Shown: positions 43,712-55,376, counted from the first letter of the stretch. The stretch is 55,376 nucleotides of DNA from Herpetosiphonaceae bacterium (GCA_013821605.1 JACDGP010000019.1:1-55376), one strand, 5' to 3'. Translations and numbers: made by a program. Notes: generated by a model not told the origin, from the letters alone.

Positions 43712-45130
43712 ATGCCAATGACCATACCGCTTGCCGATCCATTCACACTTGCGCGTGATCTGCTCCTGCGTCCAGCGCATGCCGGCCAACGATTAGAACA
43801 TGGTGACAGCTGGTCGGCTGTGGCAATGACCAGCTTATGGGTTACGGTCATGCTCGCCTTCATGATCCTGGTCTTGCCACAGCTTTTTCCGGTGGGTACG
43901 CAAGGCGTGGGCCTCGGGCTCGGTTTAAGTTTCGGGTTTGTGTTGCTTGTCATAGGTGTGGGTGTGGCAAGTGCCAATCCACGTCGCTCCGGCAAAAGCA
44001 ACATGATCGTGGTCCTCCGGCCCCTGCTTGCAACATGGCCACCACTCGCTCTGGTTGGTACTGCGCTATTCAGTGCTCATCCATTGAGCACCGCTCCTTT
44101 TGCACAAATGGGGCTCTTGCTGCTTTTTCTGCTCCTGGTTGGGGGTGCGATTGGTTCTTTGCTGTGTTTGCGACTTGTGCTCGACCCACGGGCAACAGAG
44201 GCGGCGGCGGCACGGGCCGTGTTGGGGAGCGCCGCGTTAGGACTGGGGACAGCAAGTTTTTGGTTAGCGTGGTCGCCTCCGCCGTGGCCTGGCCTGGTGG
44301 GGGTAGTCATCATTGGCATCGCCTTCGGCCTGCTCCGTCCCCTAAGTTGGCTGTGGGAAATGCTACTGAGCCTCGCATTAGCCGCGCTTGCGCGGGCCGG
44401 TGTCTCGCCGTGGGTATTGCTCACGTGGCATCCCGTCAACTATGATGAACAATGTTTGCTGCCACTGCCTGGGTTGACCAGCTTACTATACCGTGCGTGT
44501 AACGTGGATATCGAGCGGGGCGGGGCGTGGCTTGTGGCTGTTGCCGAGCATCCGAGCCAAGCGCGCGCAGCATACATGTTGCTCCGGCGCGTGGCACATG
44601 CTGGGCAGTTGGCACATCCACTGCTGTTTTGGTTAAGTACTGCGGAGCGGGGCGTGGCTGTGCTCGAACGAGCCTGTGATCTCCCTCGTGCTACGGTCCC
44701 GTTGCTCCACGTATACGCTGACTTTGCCCAAACCACGCAGCCTGAAGCCTGGGCATCTGTCCTTGTGCGTCATCGATCCCTCCTTGTGGAGCATCAAGGT
44801 GAGGTTGGTGGTGCGTCACTCCGTTCACTCTTGGAGACAGCCAGCGGTATTCTGAGGGCGGAGCGGTGGCCAGTTGCGGTGGCAGCAGTGCAGTCGCTCC
44901 CACGAGGGCCACTCGGGGATGACGATCTCTGGGTGATGTTACGGGTCGTCCAGCTGTGGGTCGGAGCAGTCGAGCCAGAAGAAACGAGCGAACGCGTGTC
45001 ATTGCTCCAGGCGCTCACGCAGGAGGTCGGCGAGTTGACGGGCTGGCCCGGTGCTTTGCTGGCAACAGTGAGCGAACATTTGTTATTCTTACTGCATATT
45101 GAGCAGCAGAAGGGAGCATGGCTGAGCTAA
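43712..45130 (+). CDS. Multispanning membrane protein, unknown
   Basis: 472 residues. Residues about 40-235 hold five or six TM helices (VAMTSLWVTVMLAFMILVLP; MGLLLLFLLLVGGAIGSLLC; LVGVVIIGIAFGLLRPLSWL). The remaining half is soluble and helical (HPVNYDEQCLLPLPGLTSLL, then HEAT/TPR-like stretches such as AYMLLRRVAHAGQLAHPLLF). Not recognised. Its last codons overlap the start of the CHAT-membrane gene (TAATG at 45128-45132), so both are probably made together and may form a membrane complex. Divergent from the sigma-like gene, sharing a 183-base control region. Confidence 0.75.
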   Translation: MPMTIPLADPFTLARDLLLRPAHAGQRLEHGDSWSAVAMTSLWVTVMLAFMILVLPQLFPVGTQGVGLGLGLSFGFVLLVIGVGVASANPRRSGKSNMIVVLRPLLATWPPLALVGTALFSAHPLSTAPFAQMGLLLLFLLLVGGAIGSLLCLRLVLDPRATEAAAARAVLGSAALGLGTASFWLAWSPPPWPGLVGVVIIGIAFGLLRPLSWLWEMLLSLALAALARAGVSPWVLLTWHPVNYDEQCLLPLPGLTSLLYRACNVDIERGGAWLVAVAEHPSQARAAYMLLRRVAHAGQLAHPLLFWLSTAERGVAVLERACDLPRATVPLLHVYADFAQTTQPEAWASVLVRHRSLLVEHQGEVGGASLRSLLETASGILRAERWPVAVAAVQSLPRGPLGDDDLWVMLRVVQLWVGAVEPEETSERVSLLQALTQEVGELTGWPGALLATVSEHLLFLLHIEQQKGAWLS

Positions 45131-46974
45131 TGGAGTATGACGAACTCATTCTGCACTTCAAGCACAGTGGCACTCCCGGTGAAGAACGGTATCAAGTTGC
45201 CTTGCTGGGGCGCGGCTTGATCCTGGAAGGCGGCTTATTCCGGCAGCAAGAAACATTTTCGGCGACCGAACTGCAGGCAGTGCGGGCCGATTTCACCAAG
45301 TTCGTTGAGGAATGGCATACGCTCGAGCGCCTCGGCTTTCCGGGCCGCGCTGCCAACGAACGCCCATTAATCGATCTGGGGGCCCGCGTTGCGTGCGTGT
45401 TACCTCCCCAAACGCGACGCAGCCTGCGTCAGGCGATTCAACACACCCATCAACGTCAGCACGGCTTACGGGTGGTGATCCGCGTGGAGCCGGATGCGCT
45501 CGTCTTGATGGATGTACCCTGGGAATTGATGGTGTTGCCGACGTTGCCTGATGGTGGGCTGTCAGAAGCTGCCACAACCTTTATTTTTTTGGACGCCAAG
45601 GTGGTCGTGGTCCGTCAAGTAGCAGCCATCGGGCAACAACAGCCGCTTTGCCTGAACGCTGACCTACGCCCCCAGATTATCGTCGCCCAACCGCTGGAGG
45701 CATCTGAGATCAAGATCGATCTGATCCGCACGGCGCTGACAGATGTCGTGCCGGTGGATGCAACGACATGGTATGAAGGCGTGGGGACAGTAGCAGCATT
45801 GCAAACACGCCTGCGGGAGCATGTGCCGCGTGTGTTGCATGTCATTTGTCATGGTGGTCCAGCTGATACGGGGCGTGGGCTACGCTATGATCTGCTCTTC
45901 ACCCACCACGATGGCTATACCCAGCGGGTGAATGTTTTTGATTTGGCTCCTACCCTATCGTTGGATGCGAATCTCCAATTGGTGCTGTTAGATGCTTGTC
46001 ATAGCGGTGCATCCCAAGCCGATGATGCACGACGCGCCAGCGAGAGTATTGCGCTGGGGTTGGTACGCTATGGTATTCCCGTGGTCGTGGCCCTACAGGG
46101 CGAGATAGGACAGGAGGCAGCAGCGGCCTTCGTGGCCACGTTCTATGGTGCCCTGCACGACCAACTCCCGCTCGCGGAGGCGGTCGCGCAAGGACGGCTG
46201 GCGATTCAGGCGTTGGGCAGTGCCGATTGGAGCTTGCCAGTTATTTATGAAGGCTGTCAACCGCAGGCCCCCGCAGTCTTCTATACGCGCTGGGCGGACC
46301 GGATCGAGCAACTCTTCCATGATCGGGCCAGTCGGCGCGTGCTTCGAGGCATGCTGGTTGTGCTGGGAATACTCTTGATAACTGGGGCCATTCTTTATGC
46401 GGTGGTGTTGCCGCCGCCTGCAGCGCCAAGCGTAGGCGATCAGCTATTCATGGCAGCACAAGGCTGGGGCTTGGTTGGGATCGTCGCTCCCAGCGTGATC
46501 GCTGCTGCCCATCGTGGAACAGCGTACCAACGGGGCAAGTCAGGGCGGGTGCAACGGATGCTGCGGACCGAGCAATGGCTAGGAGCCTATCTTGGATATA
46601 TCTTAGGTGGACTGATGGGCTGGACGTTGCTCGTCGCTGGCTATTTTTTGGGGCTGCTCACGCGCGGCAGTGTCGCCAGCCAACGTTCCATCGTTGATCT
46701 CTTTATCATCGCGGTTGTTGCTTGGTCGCTGCTGCTCAGTTATGCCCAAGCACGTAGCCTCGGACGCTTGGCTGCGCAACTGGTTGATGAAGAGCCGGCC
46801 TTATTCACTTGGCGCTATCAGTGGGCGGCCTTGGTTGCTTTTCCCGTTCTGTTGAGTATCCCACTCGATGTACGGTGGATGATCCACTCACCCTTAGCCC
46901 TGCTAACGCAGCCGGTACCCGGAGGACTTGCTCTGGGTCTGCTGCTGCTTACACCAGCGTTGCTTGACGAGTAG
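45118..46974 (+). CDS. CHAT-domain protein with C-terminal transmembrane helices
   Basis: 618 residues. N-terminal domain of about 190 residues (YDELILHFKHSGTPGEERYQ; LVLMDVPWELMVLPT). The CHAT peptidase domain has HVICHGG (His245) and VLLDACHSGA (Cys294), then SIALGLVRYGIPVVVALQG. Behind residue 400 are five hydrophobic helices (GMLVVLGILLITGAILYAVV; YLGYILGGLMGWTLLVAGYF). The catalytic pair is intact, and the peptidase faces the cytoplasm if the N-terminus is inside. Two starts are possible: ATG 45118, and ATG 45130 as TAATG with the upstream stop. It has no TPR part, unlike the first CHAT gene, and is convergent (3-base gap) with the second anti-sigma-like gene. Confidence 0.88.
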   Translation: MAELMEYDELILHFKHSGTPGEERYQVALLGRGLILEGGLFRQQETFSATELQAVRADFTKFVEEWHTLERLGFPGRAANERPLIDLGARVACVLPPQTRRSLRQAIQHTHQRQHGLRVVIRVEPDALVLMDVPWELMVLPTLPDGGLSEAATTFIFLDAKVVVVRQVAAIGQQQPLCLNADLRPQIIVAQPLEASEIKIDLIRTALTDVVPVDATTWYEGVGTVAALQTRLREHVPRVLHVICHGGPADTGRGLRYDLLFTHHDGYTQRVNVFDLAPTLSLDANLQLVLLDACHSGASQADDARRASESIALGLVRYGIPVVVALQGEIGQEAAAAFVATFYGALHDQLPLAEAVAQGRLAIQALGSADWSLPVIYEGCQPQAPAVFYTRWADRIEQLFHDRASRRVLRGMLVVLGILLITGAILYAVVLPPPAAPSVGDQLFMAAQGWGLVGIVAPSVIAAAHRGTAYQRGKSGRVQRMLRTEQWLGAYLGYILGGLMGWTLLVAGYFLGLLTRGSVASQRSIVDLFIIAVVAWSLLLSYAQARSLGRLAAQLVDEEPALFTWRYQWAALVAFPVLLSIPLDVRWMIHSPLALLTQPVPGGLALGLLLLTPALLDE

Positions 46975-48742: not shown

Positions 48743-48928
48743 ATGGTATGGTGTTTCGCAGGTTTGGGATTCTCGGTCGCGCTTTTGGGCTTTGGCATGC
48801 TGCTAATGCATCCCTTCCGGTGGTTACGGCATCTGCAGCCCGCCCTGCTGTTGCGCGGGTGCCTGGCGAGTCTGTGCCTCTTCGTAGCACTGGGCCTGAT
48901 CGGTCTGGCAATGGCAATCGCACGCTAG
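48743..48928 (+). CDS. Small membrane protein (61 aa), first gene of the CRISPR adaptation operon
   Basis: 61 residues from ATG 48743 with AAGGAGGGACGA directly upstream. Two hydrophobic helices (CFAGLGFSVALLGFGMLLM; LCLFVALGLIGLAMAIA) flank the basic loop HPFRWLRHLQP, a hairpin topology. The family is unknown. The reading frame of the RNase H gene extends through it in another frame, but the ribosome site and hydrophobicity fit this frame. The stop (48928) is 14 bases before the RNase H start. In the 265-base gap to the sigma-like gene I found no clear promoter; TTGACG at 48536 is a candidate -35. Confidence 0.65.
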   Translation: MVWCFAGLGFSVALLGFGMLLMHPFRWLRHLQPALLLRGCLASLCLFVALGLIGLAMAIAR

Positions 48929-48942
48929 GGCCGGAGAATACA

Positions 48943-49389
48943 GTGGTGATCTTGCAGGTCGATGGGACGCCGGGAGCAGAGCAGCGCGGGGTTGCAGGGG
49001 TGGGCGTGGTCGTGCGGGCAATGAATGGTCGTGTGCTTACATGGCATTGCCGCCAAGTCCCTGCTCAGACCTGTAATGAGGCGGAGTATCAAGCCTTGAT
49101 CGTCGGGTTGGAAGTGATCGCACGGCAGCAACCGACCACAGTATGGTGTGTCAGTGATAGCCGAGTAGTGATGGACCAAATGACCGGGCGCTGCAATGTC
49201 CACGCCGGACCACTGCAACCACTTCACGCACAGGCTATGGCATTAGCGCGTCAGCTTCCGCGTATTCGGTACATCGCTATCCCGCGCGCTTGGAATCGCT
49301 TAGCCGATGCGCTGGCGTGGGAAGCGTTGGGTGGACGACAGCAGTTAATGCAGGGCGTGATCCGACAAGAACAGCCGGTTCGTGAGTAG
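48943..49389 (+). CDS. Ribonuclease HI-family protein, stand-alone
   Basis: 148 residues from GTG 48943, with CCGGAG six bases upstream. The DEDD active site of RNase HI is complete: VDGTP (Asp7), CNEAEYQAL (Glu48), VSDSR (Asp72) and RLADALAW (Asp122). RNase HI cuts the RNA strand of RNA-DNA hybrids. The usual basic protrusion of E. coli RNase HI is not evident, as in the shorter reverse-transcriptase-like RNase H group. It is in one operon with a reverse transcriptase and cas1-cas2, so a role in clearing RNA from a cDNA hybrid made from a captured RNA protospacer is plausible. The upstream frame to 48706 is open but not used. Confidence 0.85.
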   Translation: MVILQVDGTPGAEQRGVAGVGVVVRAMNGRVLTWHCRQVPAQTCNEAEYQALIVGLEVIARQQPTTVWCVSDSRVVMDQMTGRCNVHAGPLQPLHAQAMALARQLPRIRYIAIPRAWNRLADALAWEALGGRQQLMQGVIRQEQPVRE

Positions 49390-49407
49390 GAATGTGGAGG
49401 AACGGTT

Positions 49408-50685
49408 ATGGCACTGCGAGCAATGGTACAAGCGACAGCGGTCGGTGCGATGCAGGATGGGTTGGCGGTGTTGCAGGGGTCGGTGATTCCGACCGCGGAA
49501 GGATTACCGCTGAGCACTGAATTTCAGATGGGGTTGGCAAGTGCCCCAATTGCGCTACCTCGTCAGATGCTGGGCTTGGCGACGCATTTGGTGGTACAGC
49601 CGGGAACGTGGGCAGTGGTGTACCTACCAGGTGGTGAACGGCGTGTGTATGAGCCGGGCAGTTATTGGCTGTGGGGTGTCGGCCCGGGCGTGATTTTGGT
49701 GCAATGGGTGGACGCGCGCTGCCAGCCCGTGGCAGTCGGCCCAATCGAAGGATGGAGTGCCGATAAGTGGCGGGTACGTCTTTGGGTGATCGTTGATGTC
49801 GAGGTGGCGGACCCAGTCCGCATGGCGGTGCACCGTGATCCTTTGAATGTTCTGAGCATGGCGGTGCGAAGTGCTGCTCTGCAGCATATGGAACAGCATG
49901 CCCATGCCGAGTTGACGGGTGGTGCGGGGCATGGCGGCGGCATTGATGGGCCAGCCCGAGCGATTACCGAGCGGCTCGCTGCCGATGGAGCACTGGAGGG
50001 CTTGCGCATCGTTGCGGTGCGGATCGTTGAGCGACAGGGTGACGAGCGACAAATCGAGGCGGCGACGACGGCAACGGTGACGGCGGCACAGATTACCGAA
50101 GAGGTGCGGGTGGCCGAGGCACGTCATCAGGCACAACTCCATGCCCTCCAAAGCCAATCGGTGGTGGCTGAGCGTGAGCATACGCTCCGGATGGCAGCGA
50201 CTGCTGCCCGTGCACGTGAGCAATTGCTGCAACAGCAAGCTGAGGTGCAACAAGCCACCCTCGGCGCGCGGCTCCAGATCGTCCTGGCTCAAATCAAGGC
50301 AGAAACGGCAGTGATCGAGCACGACGAGCAGCAGTGGCAACACGAGCACGCACGTTTACAAGGCGAGTGGGAGCGGGTGCAACAGCAGCAACTTGAGGCA
50401 CATCGGGCCGATCAACAGGTGCGACTGTTGGGAGCACAACAGGGACTGGTGCGTCACGGAACTGAGGTACTGGTCCAAGCCGAAGAGCGGAGGAATGCGC
50501 ATGAACTGGCGCTTGCCGATGTGCAACGCCAGTTGGCGGAGCAGTTGGCACTCCGCGCGCAAGCCATGACGGAGCGCCGCGCCCAGCACGAGCATGCATT
50601 GCTCGAACTTCATCTGCAACATGAGCATGTGGTTGCCGAGCAGATGCAGCGGCTCGAACAATGGCACGCTGAACCAACCACTTAA
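49408..50685 (+). CDS. SPFH/band-7-like protein with long C-terminal coiled coil
   Basis: 425 residues. The N-terminal 210 residues look like an SPFH/prohibitin (band 7) fold: GTWAVVYLPGGERRVYEPGS, WRVRLWVIVDVEVADPVRMA, NVLSMAVRSAALQHMEQHAH, and GLRIVAVRIVERQGDERQIE. From about 225 on it is a continuous coiled coil rich in Gln, Glu, Ala and His (QQQLEAHRADQQVRLLGAQQ). There is no obvious TM helix at the N-terminus; such proteins bind membranes by hairpins or partners and assemble as rings or cages. GGAGG before the ATG; 18 bases after RNase H and 40 bases before the RT. The link to CRISPR acquisition is by operon only. Confidence 0.75.
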   Translation: MALRAMVQATAVGAMQDGLAVLQGSVIPTAEGLPLSTEFQMGLASAPIALPRQMLGLATHLVVQPGTWAVVYLPGGERRVYEPGSYWLWGVGPGVILVQWVDARCQPVAVGPIEGWSADKWRVRLWVIVDVEVADPVRMAVHRDPLNVLSMAVRSAALQHMEQHAHAELTGGAGHGGGIDGPARAITERLAADGALEGLRIVAVRIVERQGDERQIEAATTATVTAAQITEEVRVAEARHQAQLHALQSQSVVAEREHTLRMAATAARAREQLLQQQAEVQQATLGARLQIVLAQIKAETAVIEHDEQQWQHEHARLQGEWERVQQQQLEAHRADQQVRLLGAQQGLVRHGTEVLVQAEERRNAHELALADVQRQLAEQLALRAQAMTERRAQHEHALLELHLQHEHVVAEQMQRLEQWHAEPTT

Positions 50686-50725
50686 GGATGTGCAAACGCT
50701 GAAACGATTGAAGGAGGCAACTTAA

Positions 50726-52051
50726 ATGGCGCTGTTTCCACGGTATGAGGGCCCAGCCCTGATTGACCAAGTGTGTAGCATCGATAATTTGACGTTGGCT
50801 TGGCGCCGGGTGCGGAGCAATATCCAGGTAGCGCGCCGGCAGCGGAGCGCCGGAACGGATGCCGTAACGTTGCGAGATTTCGAGGCAGATTGGCCACGGC
50901 AAATGGCGCAATTAGCTGAAGAGGTACACAGCGGCAGCTATCGGCCCTGTCCTGTCCGCCATATCTCTATTCCGAAGTCGAGCGGTGGTCAACGGGCAAT
51001 TGCGATTCTGGCGGTGCGCGACCGGATCGCACAACGGGCCGTGCAGCAAGTGTTGGACCCATTGTTCGAGCCGCTCTTCCTCGATTGTTCGTATGGCTGT
51101 CGTCCGCAGGTGGGCGTGCCTGAGGCGGTAGCACGCGTAGAGCGGTACGCACAGCAGGGCTTGAACTGGGTGGTTGATGCCGATATTGCCACATATTTCG
51201 ACAGCTTAGACCAACGCATTCTGCTGGGGCTGCTCCGCCAGCGGGTGGCCGAAGTGCCCATTTTGCAGCTGATCGCACAATGGCTCACGGCCGGCACCCT
51301 AGCCACCGATCCGCAGGCTCCCCTGCTTGACGCGCATGGCAGTGCTGCGCTCGCACGCGGTGGCGACATGGCGCGCCGTGTCTTGGATTGGGGAATGCAG
51401 CATGCTCCATTGAACTCACCACGCCAGTCTTATGATCCCTACGCCGTTGCTCGCTGGGAGCAAGCCGACGATGATGACAGTCTGCTCCCGTTGCAGCGGG
51501 TGGTCCCGCCTGAGCAACGGCTGTGGACGGCCTTGATGCTGGCACGACCAGTCATGGCTGGTGCCCGGCGCGCGCTGCCGTATGTACAACGGCTCGGCGG
51601 CAAAAAGGTCATGGCAGCCGGTGCCGTGGCCGCGACGGTGCTGGCCGCCGGCGAGTTTGTGGCGCATCGGCAGAGTCCCGTCGGACGGGGAACACCCCAG
51701 GGCGGTGCCCTTTCGCCGTTGCTGGCCAATCTGTACTTGCATCCCTTCGATCTCGCGCTTACCAGCCAGGGCTTGCGCATGGTGCGCTTTATGGATGATT
51801 TCGTGATCATGTGCGCCAATGAAGCGGACGCCCAGCGGGCGCTTACGCTGGCTGAGCGTCAGCTCTCGACGCTTCGACTCATGCTCAATACTGACAAGAC
51901 GCGTTTGTTGCAATATGGCGACGGTCTCGAATTCCTGGGTCGTGCCCTCGCACCTCGCGGCCGGGGCTCGTTCCTCTCCAGTGGCGTAACCACTTTTGAG
52001 GAAGCCGAACATGCCTTGCGCCGTGCAGCCGGCAAGCTCCGCCATAAATAA
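50726..52051 (+). CDS. CRISPR-associated reverse transcriptase with a large RT3-RT4 insertion and FMDD active site
   Basis: 441 residues, related to group II intron RTs. RT1-2: SAGTDAVTLRDFE (41-53) and YRPCPVRHISIPKSSGGQR (72-90), AILAVRDRIAQRAVQQVLDP (93-112), CSYGCRPQVG (121-130). RT3: VVDADIATYFDSLDQ (149-163). RT4: GRGTPQGGALSPLLANLYL (320-338). RT5: RFMDDFVIM (354-362), with FMDD in place of YADD. RT6/7: MLNTDKTRLLQYGD and EFLGRAL. RT3 to RT4 normally spans about 60-70 residues; here it is about 165, with an inserted domain of about 110 residues (about 200-315) that includes the hydrophobic MAAGAVAATVLAAGEFVA. No maturase or endonuclease domain, and no fused Cas1. GGAGG start; cas1 follows after 21 bases. 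Confidence 0.9.
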   Translation: MALFPRYEGPALIDQVCSIDNLTLAWRRVRSNIQVARRQRSAGTDAVTLRDFEADWPRQMAQLAEEVHSGSYRPCPVRHISIPKSSGGQRAIAILAVRDRIAQRAVQQVLDPLFEPLFLDCSYGCRPQVGVPEAVARVERYAQQGLNWVVDADIATYFDSLDQRILLGLLRQRVAEVPILQLIAQWLTAGTLATDPQAPLLDAHGSAALARGGDMARRVLDWGMQHAPLNSPRQSYDPYAVARWEQADDDDSLLPLQRVVPPEQRLWTALMLARPVMAGARRALPYVQRLGGKKVMAAGAVAATVLAAGEFVAHRQSPVGRGTPQGGALSPLLANLYLHPFDLALTSQGLRMVRFMDDFVIMCANEADAQRALTLAERQLSTLRLMLNTDKTRLLQYGDGLEFLGRALAPRGRGSFLSSGVTTFEEAEHALRRAAGKLRHK

Positions 52052-52072
52052 ATCAATTGCAGGAGGTCTTTC

Positions 52073-53062
52073 ATGGCAACACTATATGTGGAAGAACAAG
52101 GCGCACACGTGCGCAAAAAGGATAACCAGATCCTGGTGACCAAGGAAGGGCAAACCCTGCGCGAGGTCCCGTTGGCCAAGCTCGATCAGGTCGTGCTCAT
52201 GGGTCGCGGCGTCCAAATCTCCACGGCCCTACTGGTCGATCTCATCGAACGCGGCGTACCCGTCACCTTAACCAACCAGCATGGCAGCAAATATTATGGC
52301 AGTTGGAACCAGCAGTCGCGCTTCGGTGAACTGCGCAGCCAACAAACCTTCCTGGTCCATACCAGCGAGCAAGCCTTGGCCCTGGCCCGTACCATGATCC
52401 AAGCCAAGCTTCACAATCAGCGTGCGCTGCTCCAATCAACCGGCTGGAGCAGCGCTGGCCCCGCCGTGGGCCAGATCACCAATGCCCTGCGCGACTTGGC
52501 CCAGGCCCAAACCTTGGACCAAGTGCGTGGCTACGAGGGTGCCGCCGCGAACGCCTACTTCAGTGCCTGGCGCGCCGCCTTGCCGCCGCGGTGGAGCTTT
52601 GGCGGTCGCGCCTTTTACCCGCCGCCGGATCCGGTCAACGCCCTGCTGTCGTTCGGCTATACCCTGGCGCTACATGACGTGCTGGCGGCAATCCAAATCG
52701 TCGGCCTGGACCCCTACCTGGGCACCTTCCATGTCATCGAAGCCGGTCGTCCCTCGCTCGCGCTCGACCTGCTGGAAGAGTTTCGCCCGCTCGTGGTAGA
52801 CCGCCTGGTGCTCGAACTTGTGCGGACCGAGGCGCTGCCGATCACTGGCTTCGAACGACCGCCACAACGCCCCGATGCGGTGTATCTGGGCAAAGACGGG
52901 CGGGCCTTGTTCATCGACCGCTATGAAGCCTTGCTCCAAACGCGCGTCCCCGTCGCACCCAACGAGCACACTGCGCTCCGCAGGGTGCTGCAGTTGCAAG
53001 CCCAAGCCATCGCCCGCGTGGTGCGCGGCGAGCAAGCCCAGTATGTTGGCTACACGGTCTAG
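52073..53062 (+). CDS. cas1: CRISPR-associated endonuclease Cas1
   Basis: 329 residues, the integrase of spacer acquisition. The N-terminal beta domain (MATLYVEEQGAHVRKKDNQ) and alpha-helical C-terminal domain are complete. The three metal ligands are visible: Glu155 in RGYEGAAANAYFSAW, His220 in GTFHVIEAGRPSLALD and Glu235 in LDLLEEFRPLVVDRLV. The FYPPPDPVNALLSFGYTLAL block is as in type I/III Cas1. CAGGAGG precedes the ATG. It is not fused to the RT, unlike many RT-Cas1 proteins, but is directly downstream of it. Cas2 starts 11 bases after the stop. Confidence 0.98.
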   Translation: MATLYVEEQGAHVRKKDNQILVTKEGQTLREVPLAKLDQVVLMGRGVQISTALLVDLIERGVPVTLTNQHGSKYYGSWNQQSRFGELRSQQTFLVHTSEQALALARTMIQAKLHNQRALLQSTGWSSAGPAVGQITNALRDLAQAQTLDQVRGYEGAAANAYFSAWRAALPPRWSFGGRAFYPPPDPVNALLSFGYTLALHDVLAAIQIVGLDPYLGTFHVIEAGRPSLALDLLEEFRPLVVDRLVLELVRTEALPITGFERPPQRPDAVYLGKDGRALFIDRYEALLQTRVPVAPNEHTALRRVLQLQAQAIARVVRGEQAQYVGYTV

Positions 53063-53072
53063 CGAGGGCCGC

Positions 53073-53348
53073 ATGTTCACGATCATTAGCTACGACATCG
53101 TCCAAACCAAACGCCGGACCAGAGTGTTCAAGCTCCTCAAAGGCTATGGCACCCATGTTCAGTACAGCGTCTTCGAATGCTACCTGAACCCCAAACAACT
53201 GGCGGCGGTCGAAGAAGGGCTTCGCAAGCTGATCGACCTCCAGACCGATAGCATCCGCCTGTACCTGCTCGACATCACGGCCGTGCAGCGCATCCAAGTG
53301 CTCGGCATCGGTCAGGTGAGCGACGATCCCGTCTATTTCCACACCTGA
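53073..53348 (+). CDS. cas2: CRISPR-associated protein Cas2
   Basis: 91 residues, the usual size. The ferredoxin-fold start MFTIISYDIVQTKRRTRVFK with Asp8, then GYGTHVQYSVFECYLNP and IRLYLLDITAVQRIQVLGIG, are typical. Cas2 holds two Cas1 dimers together in the integration complex. ATG 53073 has GAGGGCCGC upstream and lies 11 bases after cas1. The 3-prime end overlaps by 16 bases with the end of a convergent WYL-like gene. Confidence 0.97.
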   Translation: MFTIISYDIVQTKRRTRVFKLLKGYGTHVQYSVFECYLNPKQLAAVEEGLRKLIDLQTDSIRLYLLDITAVQRIQVLGIGQVSDDPVYFHT

Positions 53349-54208
53349 TTCCCAAACGCCGTCGCGCGGGCCGTCTTCCTGGCCCGTCGCGCCGGCTTCC
53401 CCACCAGTGCCACCTGCTGTATCCGGTCCACCCGAAAGGTGCGCTCGGCCTGCCGTAACGCCAACCACCATCATCCGGTGCCGTCTGTCCCTGCGCGCTA
53501 CACTCAGGGTCCTGTTGGACACGTACACAACACGCACCGCTCGTTCCCGGCTCCCGCTGCCAAACGATCAGGCCCAGCCATGTAAGGGGACCTGCCAGCG
53601 CCGCTTGCCAGATCGCTGCAGCTCGCCGTGGCTGCCAGGGCAGGCGTTGTACCTGCCTGAAGCCATGCGTATGGGCATCGGCCAGCGGTCCCAAGCTCGC
53701 CGCGAGCTGCTGATAGAGGGTGGTTGGCTTGAGCCACGCACCGGTCGGCACGGTCGCCACCCACTGGCAGAGCCGCCGCCGTAAGAGCGGCCAGTCAATG
53801 CCGCGCCAGTCGGGCAGCAACGGCATCAGCGGTCCGCCATTCGCGCGCAATGGCAAGGGCTGCTCAGCGCACGCCAGCAACATCGTCGTCGCCAGCCGTA
53901 GCACCGGCACCGGCGCAGCTCCCTGTCGCTGATCACTATGGGGCAAGCACCGCGGCTGAGGCAACCAACGCCGTACCTCCGGGGCTAGCAGATAATGCGC
54001 CGGGTGGCGCGGCGTCGCCGGACGCGGCAAGAGCCAGCCCAAGAGCACCAATCGCTCACTCACTGACTGCGGACGGGGTGCCCGCTCCATCTGGCGCCAG
54101 GAGCGCACCGCGCCATAGCCTGCCTGCAGGGCCGCTGGGTGATGCCACCATGCTGCGTTCGGAGCGTGTGCAATGCAGCCTGGCACGCATAGCTGCCCAT
54201 CGATTCAT
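53333..54208 (-). pseudogene. WYL-like protein, interrupted by a one-base frameshift, convergent with cas2
   Basis: Most of the frame reads VSERLVLLGWLLPRPATPRH, EVRRWLPQPRC and RGIDWPLLRRRLCQWVATVP, resembling helicase-associated/WYL regulator proteins. Near 53472 the frame must change by one base. The last part then reads WWLALRQAERTFRVDRIQQV and ALVGKPARRARKTARAT, ending at TAG 53333-53335; this LRQAERTFRVDRI block is typical of WYL domains. Adding one T after GATGAT restores a continuous gene. The 5-prime end may also be shifted: ATG 54208 has a fine AGGAG site but is one base out of frame with the main part, which as written starts at GTG 54186. WYL proteins often control CRISPR-Cas genes. 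It is either a decayed gene or carries sequence errors. Confidence 0.55.
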
Positions 54209-54367: not shown

Positions 54368-55376
54368 GTTAGGATCGGTGCCCCGTGGGGAAGGGGTTTG
54401 AAACTTCCCATCAAGCGTTACTGCAATGGGATTCGGGTTGTTAGGATCGGTGCCCCGTGGGGAAGGGGTTTGAAACCGCACGCTGTATCGCTCTTAGTAG
54501 CCAACCCGGTCAAGTGTTAGGATCGGTGCCCCGTGGGGAAGGGGTTTGAAACTTGCTCACCGAAGTGAGCCTCTGGTACCTTGTGGGCGGTTAGGATCGG
54601 TGCCCCGTGGGGAAGGGGTTTGAAACTCAGTTCAGCAGTAAACTGCTGTTCTGATGAGAAATCAAGTTAGGATCGGTGCCCCGTGGGGAAGGGGTTTGAA
54701 ACGATTGCAGTACAGGGTGTAAACCCGCATGCATTCCTGTTAGGATCGGTGCCCCGTGGGGAAGGGGTTTGAAACTCATACTGTCCTTTCGACAGTAGAT
54801 TAAGCTTCCAAGTGTTAGGATCGGTGCCCCGTGGGGAAGGGGTTTGAAACTCCGGGCTAACACCCAGGACGCTTGCTGCCTTGCAAGTTAGGATCGGTGC
54901 CCCGTGGGGAAGGGGTTTGAAACACCGCCCGGCCGTTGGGTAGGATACTGTTCCTGGAGTGTTAGGATCGGTGCCCCGTGGGGAAGGGGTTTGAAACCTG
55001 CCTTCGATGGGTTTGAGATCTCCGCCCCGAAGAGGTTAGGATCGGTGCCCCGTGGGGAAGGGGTTTGAAACATAAACTCGATAACCTACCGCCGATGAAG
55101 CGCCACAGGTTAGGATCGGTGCCCCGTGGGGAAGGGGTTTGAAACCTGAACATCCATATTCTTCTTGCACTTATAGCAAACCGGTTAGGATCGGTGCCCC
55201 GTGGGGAAGGGGTTTGAAACATCGTCCGATGCGCCTGCGGGTACCCCAGCTACTCCCGTTAGGATCGGTGCCCCGTGGGGAAGGGGTTTGAAACGAACTA
55301 TTTGCTGCCCATAAGAACAGCTACAAACAGGGTTAGGATCGGTGCCCCGTGGGGAAGGGGTTTGAAACTTGGACTG
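54368..55376 (+). CRISPR. CRISPR array: 14 identical 37-base repeats, 13 full spacers, continues past the window
   Basis: Repeats begin GTTAGGATCGGTGCCC and end GGGGTTTGAAAC, with an internal CCCCGTGGGG palindrome. Starts: 54368, 54440, 54516, 54590, 54666, 54739, 54814, 54887, 54961, 55035, 55109, 55184, 55258, 55332. All repeats look identical, so this is the young, leader-proximal side. Spacers are 35-39 bases (35, 39, 37, 39, 36, 38, 36, 37, 37, 37, 38, 37, 37), all different; the 14th is cut at 8 bases. The GAAAC end and length fit type III (or I) repeats. With transcription rightward the newest spacers are at the left. Frames read on the minus strand through the array are artefacts of the repeat. 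Confidence 0.99.

What the first reader, a model, noticed from the sequence alone, without database searches (positions are those of the whole stretch)
48743..53348. RT-Cas1-Cas2 adaptation operon that also encodes RNase HI, an SPFH coiled-coil protein and a small membrane protein
Seen: six co-directional genes with good ribosome sites and small gaps, small TM protein, RNase HI (DEDD complete), SPFH/coiled coil, RT, cas1, cas2, next to a 14-repeat array. Known: RT-Cas1 systems can acquire spacers from RNA. Inference: RNase HI would remove the RNA from a spacer-length RNA-cDNA hybrid, and the SPFH and TM proteins would place the complex at the membrane, where phage RNA or DNA enters. I know of no described system with this gene set.
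Basis: partly seen in the sequence, partly recalled or inferred. Interest (0 to 1): 0.92.

Follow-up and report, generated by a model that had tools for sequence, protein, structure and literature searches.

The report
CRISPR reverse-transcriptase operon with RNase HI
This is a real, conserved bacterial gene set in which a CRISPR memory-making machine (reverse transcriptase, Cas1, Cas2) travels with its own RNA-removing enzyme, a small membrane protein and often a ring-forming scaffold protein, which gives a direct way to test how RNA could be turned into CRISPR memory.

Summary
In detail: TM (61 aa), RNase HI, SPFH/coiled coil, unfused RT, cas1 and cas2 are co-directional, 10-40 bp apart, and lie before a 14-repeat array. 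It is more than chance. In all 82 genomes of the order, the RNase HI subfamily directly precedes the RT at 28 of 32 RT loci; the exceptions have broken RTs or cut contigs. All 19 SPFH hits lie at these loci. RNase HI-RT-cas1-cas2 also occurs in another Chloroflexota family. RT-linked RNase HIs separate from other phylum RNase HIs (support 100/97); catalytic D-E-D-D is conserved. The RT carries a ~115-aa insert with a hydrophobic helix, absent from other CRISPR RTs. SPFH is accessory: ten loci lack it. A type III-D-like effector sits elsewhere in the genome. Best reading: an RNA-capable adaptation module with its own RNase HI, possibly membrane-tethered; function untested. Novelty is limited: the RT clade is known (Toro 2017, clade 9), and Altae-Tran 2023 catalogued RNaseH-linked adaptation modules (UAS-3/45) and names RVT, WYL and HflK (an SPFH protein) in the same figure panel, uncharacterised.

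The parts
48743..48928 (+). 61-aa two-helix membrane protein
   Evidence: Hydrophobic stretches at residues 4-22 and 41-59; homologue at the same place, touching or overlapping the RNase HI start, in nearly all loci of three families.
48946..49389 (+). RNase HI (RVT_3/PF13456), 147 aa, catalytic D-E-D-D present
   Evidence: Pfam 3.8e-22; solved relatives 3hst, 3u3g; catalytic residues conserved.
49408..50685 (+). SPFH domain plus about 210-residue coiled coil, 425 aa, no N-terminal TM segment
   Evidence: Band_7 7.8e-8; model pLDDT 73 with SPFH fold and long helix; matches stomatin, HflK/C, prohibitin, flotillin, erlin, vault; family found only at these loci.
50726..52051 (+). group II-intron-like reverse transcriptase, not fused to Cas1, catalytic Asp residues intact (DADI, FMDD)
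   Evidence: Pfam and NCBIfam; nearest solved GsI-IIC RT; invariant catalytic columns.
51302..51685 (+). insert inside the RT between the motif A and motif B regions, holding a hydrophobic helix at about 51608-51664
   Evidence: Insert of 107-122 residues in all clade members and in f13/G233, absent from other RTs.
52073..53062 (+). cas1
   Evidence: Pfam 2.2e-84; solved homologues.
53073..53348 (+). cas2
   Evidence: Pfam 1.1e-22.
53458..54117 (-). remnant of the WYL-protein gene that stands convergent to cas2 in most relatives; WYL end lost here
   Evidence: tblastn pieces at 40-41% identity; intact relative has PF13280 WYL.
54368..55376 (+). CRISPR array, 14 repeats of 37 nt (GTTAGGATCGGTGCCCCGTGGGGAAGGGGTTTGAAAC), runs off the contig

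Best explanation
A CRISPR adaptation module that can write RNA into memory and carries its own RNase HI. The stand-alone RT copies captured RNA into cDNA; RNase HI removes the RNA strand (and may leave a short RNA primer), so that the second DNA strand can be made; Cas1-Cas2 insert the double-stranded spacer into the neighbouring array, which serves a type III effector encoded elsewhere in the genome. The small membrane protein, the hydrophobic helix in the RT insert and, in most lineages, the SPFH coiled-coil ring hold the complex together, probably at the membrane. Shown: the genes, their intact active sites, their conserved and exclusive linkage. Inferred: the order of steps, RNA as substrate, the membrane location.
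For: RNase HI adjacent to RT in 28 of 32 loci across the order, at roughly 45-60% protein identity; order RNase HI-RT-cas1-cas2 also in family f13 outside the order; RT-linked RNase HIs form one side of a 100/97 branch against 26 other RNase HIs; catalytic residues conserved in RNase HI, RT and Cas1. SPFH only at these loci, 19 of 19, and still linked when moved to the other strand (L095, L096). TM protein near-universal. Type III RAMP genes on the same contig in several loci and a Cas10/Csx10/Csx7/Cas6 locus in the own genome. One spacer of the linked array in G007 equals 31 nt of that genome's own 16S rRNA, the only self match found among 72 spacers in three rRNA operons plus 800 kb of that genome. 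RNase H digestion followed by second-strand synthesis is a route discussed for RT-Cas1 by PMC11014452.
Against: No biochemistry exists. G030 keeps TM, RNase HI, cas1 and cas2 without an RT. The rRNA spacer is one case, matches only 31 of 38 nt, was noticed by chance and could come from DNA. M. mediterranea RT-Cas1 integrates RNA directly and is not reported to need an RNase H of its own (PMC11014452). The hydrophobicity of the RT insert (1.83) is not far above that of soluble Cas1 (1.63). SPFH is absent from ten loci.
Confidence: 0.55

Rival explanations
1. RNase HI works after integration: RNA or RNA-cDNA is inserted directly, as in M. mediterranea, and RNase HI then clears ribonucleotides from the array so that the gap can be filled with DNA.
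For: Direct integration of dN-tailed RNA and RNA-cDNA duplexes is shown for another RT-Cas1 (PMC11014452); RNase HI persists with cas1-cas2 in G030 where the RT is gone.
Against: RNase HI is absent beside the insert-less RT-Cas1 loci examined, which should need the same clean-up.
Confidence: 0.2
2. RNase HI is a filter that destroys RNA-cDNA hybrids, so that spacers from host RNA are not stored and the RT serves DNA repair synthesis at prespacers.
For: Only one rRNA-matching spacer among about 470 screened against the rRNA operons at hand.
Against: That one rRNA spacer exists; rRNA operons of only six genomes could be tested; the RT is almost strictly co-inherited with RNase HI and keeps all catalytic residues.
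Confidence: 0.12
3. The TM, SPFH and WYL genes are regulatory or scaffold passengers unrelated to RNA capture; only RNase HI-RT-Cas1-Cas2 is one machine.
For: SPFH missing from ten loci and reduced to a coiled-coil fragment in G027b; WYL domains are described as ligand-binding regulators of prokaryotic defence systems (title of PMC4012209, seen).
Against: TM near-universal; SPFH exclusive to these loci and retained after an inversion.
Confidence: 0.35
4. Chance neighbours or a housekeeping RNase HI.
For: RNase HI genes are common in bacteria.
Against: Only PF13456 match in the own genome; in the order, found at these loci and a few remnants; separate branch in the tree.
Confidence: 0.01

Closest known systems
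RT-CRISPR clade 9 (Chloroflexi), Toro et al. 2017, PMC5541045
   Same: Chloroflexota hosts; RT encoded separately from Cas1; no effector operon attached.
   Different: Toro had 3 records and states that no complete operon was available for clade 9; the main text mentions no RNase HI, SPFH, TM or WYL neighbours. Clade identity itself could not be tested here.
UAS-3/UAS-45 adaptation modules linked with RNaseH, Altae-Tran et al. 2023, PMC10910872
   Same: Cas adaptation module linked to RNaseH; the text mentions TM proteins; the legend of the same panel names RVT, WYL, Tfb2 and HflK (an SPFH protein).
   Different: Only catalogued; gene order, RT insert, catalytic conservation, distribution and mechanism are not in the main text; figure and Data S2 could not be read, so identity is probable, not shown.
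M. mediterranea RT-Cas1/Cas2 (clade 8), PMC11014452
   Same: Group II-like RT working with Cas1-Cas2; type III effectors.
   Different: RT fused to Cas1; no RNase H gene reported; RNA is integrated directly with dN tails.
Hot-spring 'no reference' Cas1 clades, PMC9755687
   Same: RNase H-like and DUF370 genes are listed as frequent neighbours; many members are Chloroflexota.
   Different: No link to an RT is drawn in the passages read. A RemA-like (DUF370, PF04025) gene does lie between RNase HI and RT in L141 and L142 here.
HflK/C, flotillin and vault proteins (SPFH rings)
   Same: SPFH domain followed by a long coiled coil.
   Different: No N-terminal membrane segment; tied to a CRISPR adaptation operon.

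Membership tests
RT-CRISPR clade 9 (Toro 2017) | RT unfused, adjacent to cas1 | tested here: met
   Window and all intact relatives.
RT-CRISPR clade 9 (Toro 2017) | Chloroflexota host | tested here: met
   Named relatives are Chloroflexus, Oscillochloris and other Chloroflexales.
RT-CRISPR clade 9 (Toro 2017) | falls in the clade in the RT tree | not testable with these tools
RNase HI | RNase H fold/profile and D-E-D-D active site | tested here: met
RNase HI | cleaves RNA in RNA-DNA hybrids | not testable with these tools
   needs an enzyme assay
SPFH/Band 7 | SPFH domain followed by coiled coil | tested here: met
SPFH/Band 7 | N-terminal membrane segment as in HflK, stomatin or prohibitin (a feature of many, not all, members) | tested here: not met
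   Best 19-residue window anywhere is 1.21 and the best near the N-terminus is 1.08.
Type III CRISPR-Cas | Cas10 and RAMP genes with the adaptation module | tested here: inconclusive
   Not on the window contig near the operon; Cas10, Csx10, Csx7 and Cas6 on contig C69 of the same genome; RAMPs close to the operon in G060, G015, G016, G003, G033, G012.
UAS-3/UAS-45 (Altae-Tran 2023) | RNaseH linked to an adaptation module, same protein clusters | not testable with these tools
   Main text and legend read; Data S2 not available.
RNA-acquiring adaptation module | spacers derived from RNA | tested here: inconclusive
   One 16S-matching spacer (31 of 38 nt) in the linked array of G007; strand bias not measurable.

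The most novel reading that the evidence does not exclude
A membrane-tethered retro-adaptation machine: an SPFH ring and a two-helix membrane protein hold an RT (itself bearing a membrane helix in an insert before motif B), RNase HI and Cas1-Cas2, so that RNA entering or transcribed at the membrane is copied, freed of RNA and stored as double-stranded spacers, a CRISPR counterpart of the RT-RNase H pair of retroviruses.
Probability: 0.25. Interest if true: 0.85.

Novelty: new variant of a known kind. Interest (0 to 1): 0.62.

Why it matters
How RNA-derived spacers become double-stranded DNA is open: for the studied RT-Cas1, an RNase H plus second-strand route was considered and could not be excluded. 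Here evolution has tied an RNase HI to the RT for a long time, which makes that step testable in one operon with clear point mutants. It would also bring membrane and scaffold proteins into CRISPR adaptation.

Tried and rejected
AlphaFold model of the RT: pLDDT 43, not used. SPFH in viral contigs: none confirmed. Upstream CHAT protein, sigma factor and anti-sigma as part of the system: no homologue at any other locus, so rejected. Phage targets of the array of G007: no convincing phage hit, only the 16S match. rRNA test for other genomes: only six of twenty had a readable 16S. Whole-genome self-target search was limited to 800 kb of G007. PADLOC gave no family for TM, RNase HI or SPFH. Chance co-location: rejected.

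Full report
Observation. The window holds six co-directional genes at 48743-53348: a 61-aa two-helix membrane protein, RNase HI, an SPFH/coiled-coil protein, a group II-like RT, cas1 and cas2, followed by a 14-repeat array that runs off the contig. Gaps are 10-40 bp, most with good ribosome sites. RT, RNase HI and Cas1 keep their catalytic residues.

Conservation. An RT search of bacterial genomes gave 11 Chloroflexales loci; seven of them, among them Chloroflexus islandicus, carry all six genes in the same order. I then searched all 82 genomes of the order with profiles for SPFH, RT, RNase HI and Cas1, fetched 40 loci and mapped them. RNase HI lies directly beside the RT, on the same strand (with or without SPFH between), in 28 of 32 RT loci; in one further genome (G066) the two are split between contig ends. 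The loci without it are two broken RTs (G040, G041) and two RTs cut by contig ends (G020, G057). SPFH has 19 hits, all at these loci: 16 beside the RT on the same strand, two on the opposite strand just upstream (G015, G016), and one coiled-coil fragment (G027b). Ten loci with RNase HI-RT lack it. The TM protein is found almost wherever the upstream DNA is present in families f1, f2 and f4, and not in the two Herpetosiphon-like loci. Several genomes hold decaying copies (G013, G024, G026, G040, G041, G069). G030 keeps TM, RNase HI, cas1 and cas2 but has no RT.

Beyond the order. In a draw of 400 Chloroflexota genomes, RNase HI-RT-cas1-cas2 recurs in three genomes of family f13, without SPFH and, in two of them, with a RemA-like gene between RNase HI and RT. 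SPFH was found nowhere else. Cas1-linked RTs without the insert (G196, L017, L019, L024) have no RNase HI beside them; some of these contigs are short. One insert-bearing RT (G233) has no RNase HI on its short contig.

Trees. RT-linked RNase HIs (Chloroflexales, Herpetosiphon-like, f13) are separated from 26 other Chloroflexota RNase HIs by a branch with 100/97 support. All insert-bearing RTs carry 107-122 residues between the motif A and motif B regions, where other CRISPR and intron RTs have about ten. The insert always holds an Ala-rich hydrophobic stretch; at about 1.6-2.0 on the Kyte-Doolittle scale in most it is borderline for a membrane helix, and soluble Cas1 reaches 1.63. The deep branching of the insert-bearing RTs is not well resolved.

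SPFH. The model (pLDDT 73) shows an SPFH domain and a 210-residue helix and matches stomatin, HflK/C, prohibitin, erlin, flotillin and vault. It lacks an N-terminal membrane segment, so its place at the membrane, if any, would come from partners such as the TM protein. A ring- or cage-forming role is inferred from the family.

WYL. A gene for a WYL-domain protein (776 aa in L016) stands convergent between cas2 and the array in most relatives; the window keeps only its first part.

Effector. The own genome has a type III-D-like locus (Cas10, Csx10, Csx7, Cas6, a CARF protein) on contig C69, and type III RAMP genes lie on the operon's contig in several relatives. In G060 a Cas10 operon lies upstream of the module on the same contig.

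RNA origin of spacers. The linked array of G007 (72 distinct spacers; the genome length of 5,258,541 bp matches C. aurantiacus J-10-fl from memory) has a spacer with 31 of 38 nt identical to its own 16S rRNA, antisense to it. No other self match appeared in 800 kb of that genome or in the three rRNA operons. This fits capture of abundant RNA, but it is a single case found by chance, and the remaining 7 nt are unexplained.

Literature. Toro 2017 defines the Chloroflexi clade 9 with RT separate from Cas1 and states that no complete operons were available. [quoted passage not shown] A hot-spring Cas1 survey lists RNase H-like and DUF370 neighbours of unclassified Cas1. I found no functional study in the held library. 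For M. mediterranea RT-Cas1, RNase H plus second-strand synthesis is discussed as a route not excluded.

Judgement. The linkage is real, old and nearly exclusive. The RNase HI step is the most likely mechanism (0.55), with post-integration clean-up as the main rival. The membrane part is weaker. Novelty is reduced because the association was catalogued in 2023; mechanism and anatomy remain open.

Noticed in passing
L091:17894-17931 (G007 array): A spacer matches 31 of 38 nt of the host's own 16S rRNA, antisense; the other 7 nt match neither the 16S context nor the sampled genome.
   Followed up: partly
L141:8281-8604 and L142:10774-11052: RemA-like (PF04025/DUF370) gene between RNase HI and RT in family f13, at the place that SPFH takes in Chloroflexales.
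   Followed up: partly
window 53458-54117, and L091, L094-L106 and others: Large WYL protein convergent to cas2 in most loci, truncated in the window.
   Followed up: partly
L006:12707-15037: A 776-aa VWA-domain protein gene inserted between cas1 and cas2.
   Followed up: no
L092:8914-9891: In the Herpetosiphon-like loci an unknown 326-aa ORF lies between SPFH and RT; no Pfam match.
   Followed up: no
window 45118-46974: CHAT-domain protein with hydrophobic helices beside a sigma/anti-sigma pair; not conserved with the operon.
   Followed up: yes
G013, G024, G026, G040, G041, G069 (L121, L120, L122, L126, L125, L128): Repeated decay of the operon, with the TM gene often the best-kept part; G030 (L101) keeps intact RNase HI and cas1-cas2 without an RT.
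   Followed up: partly
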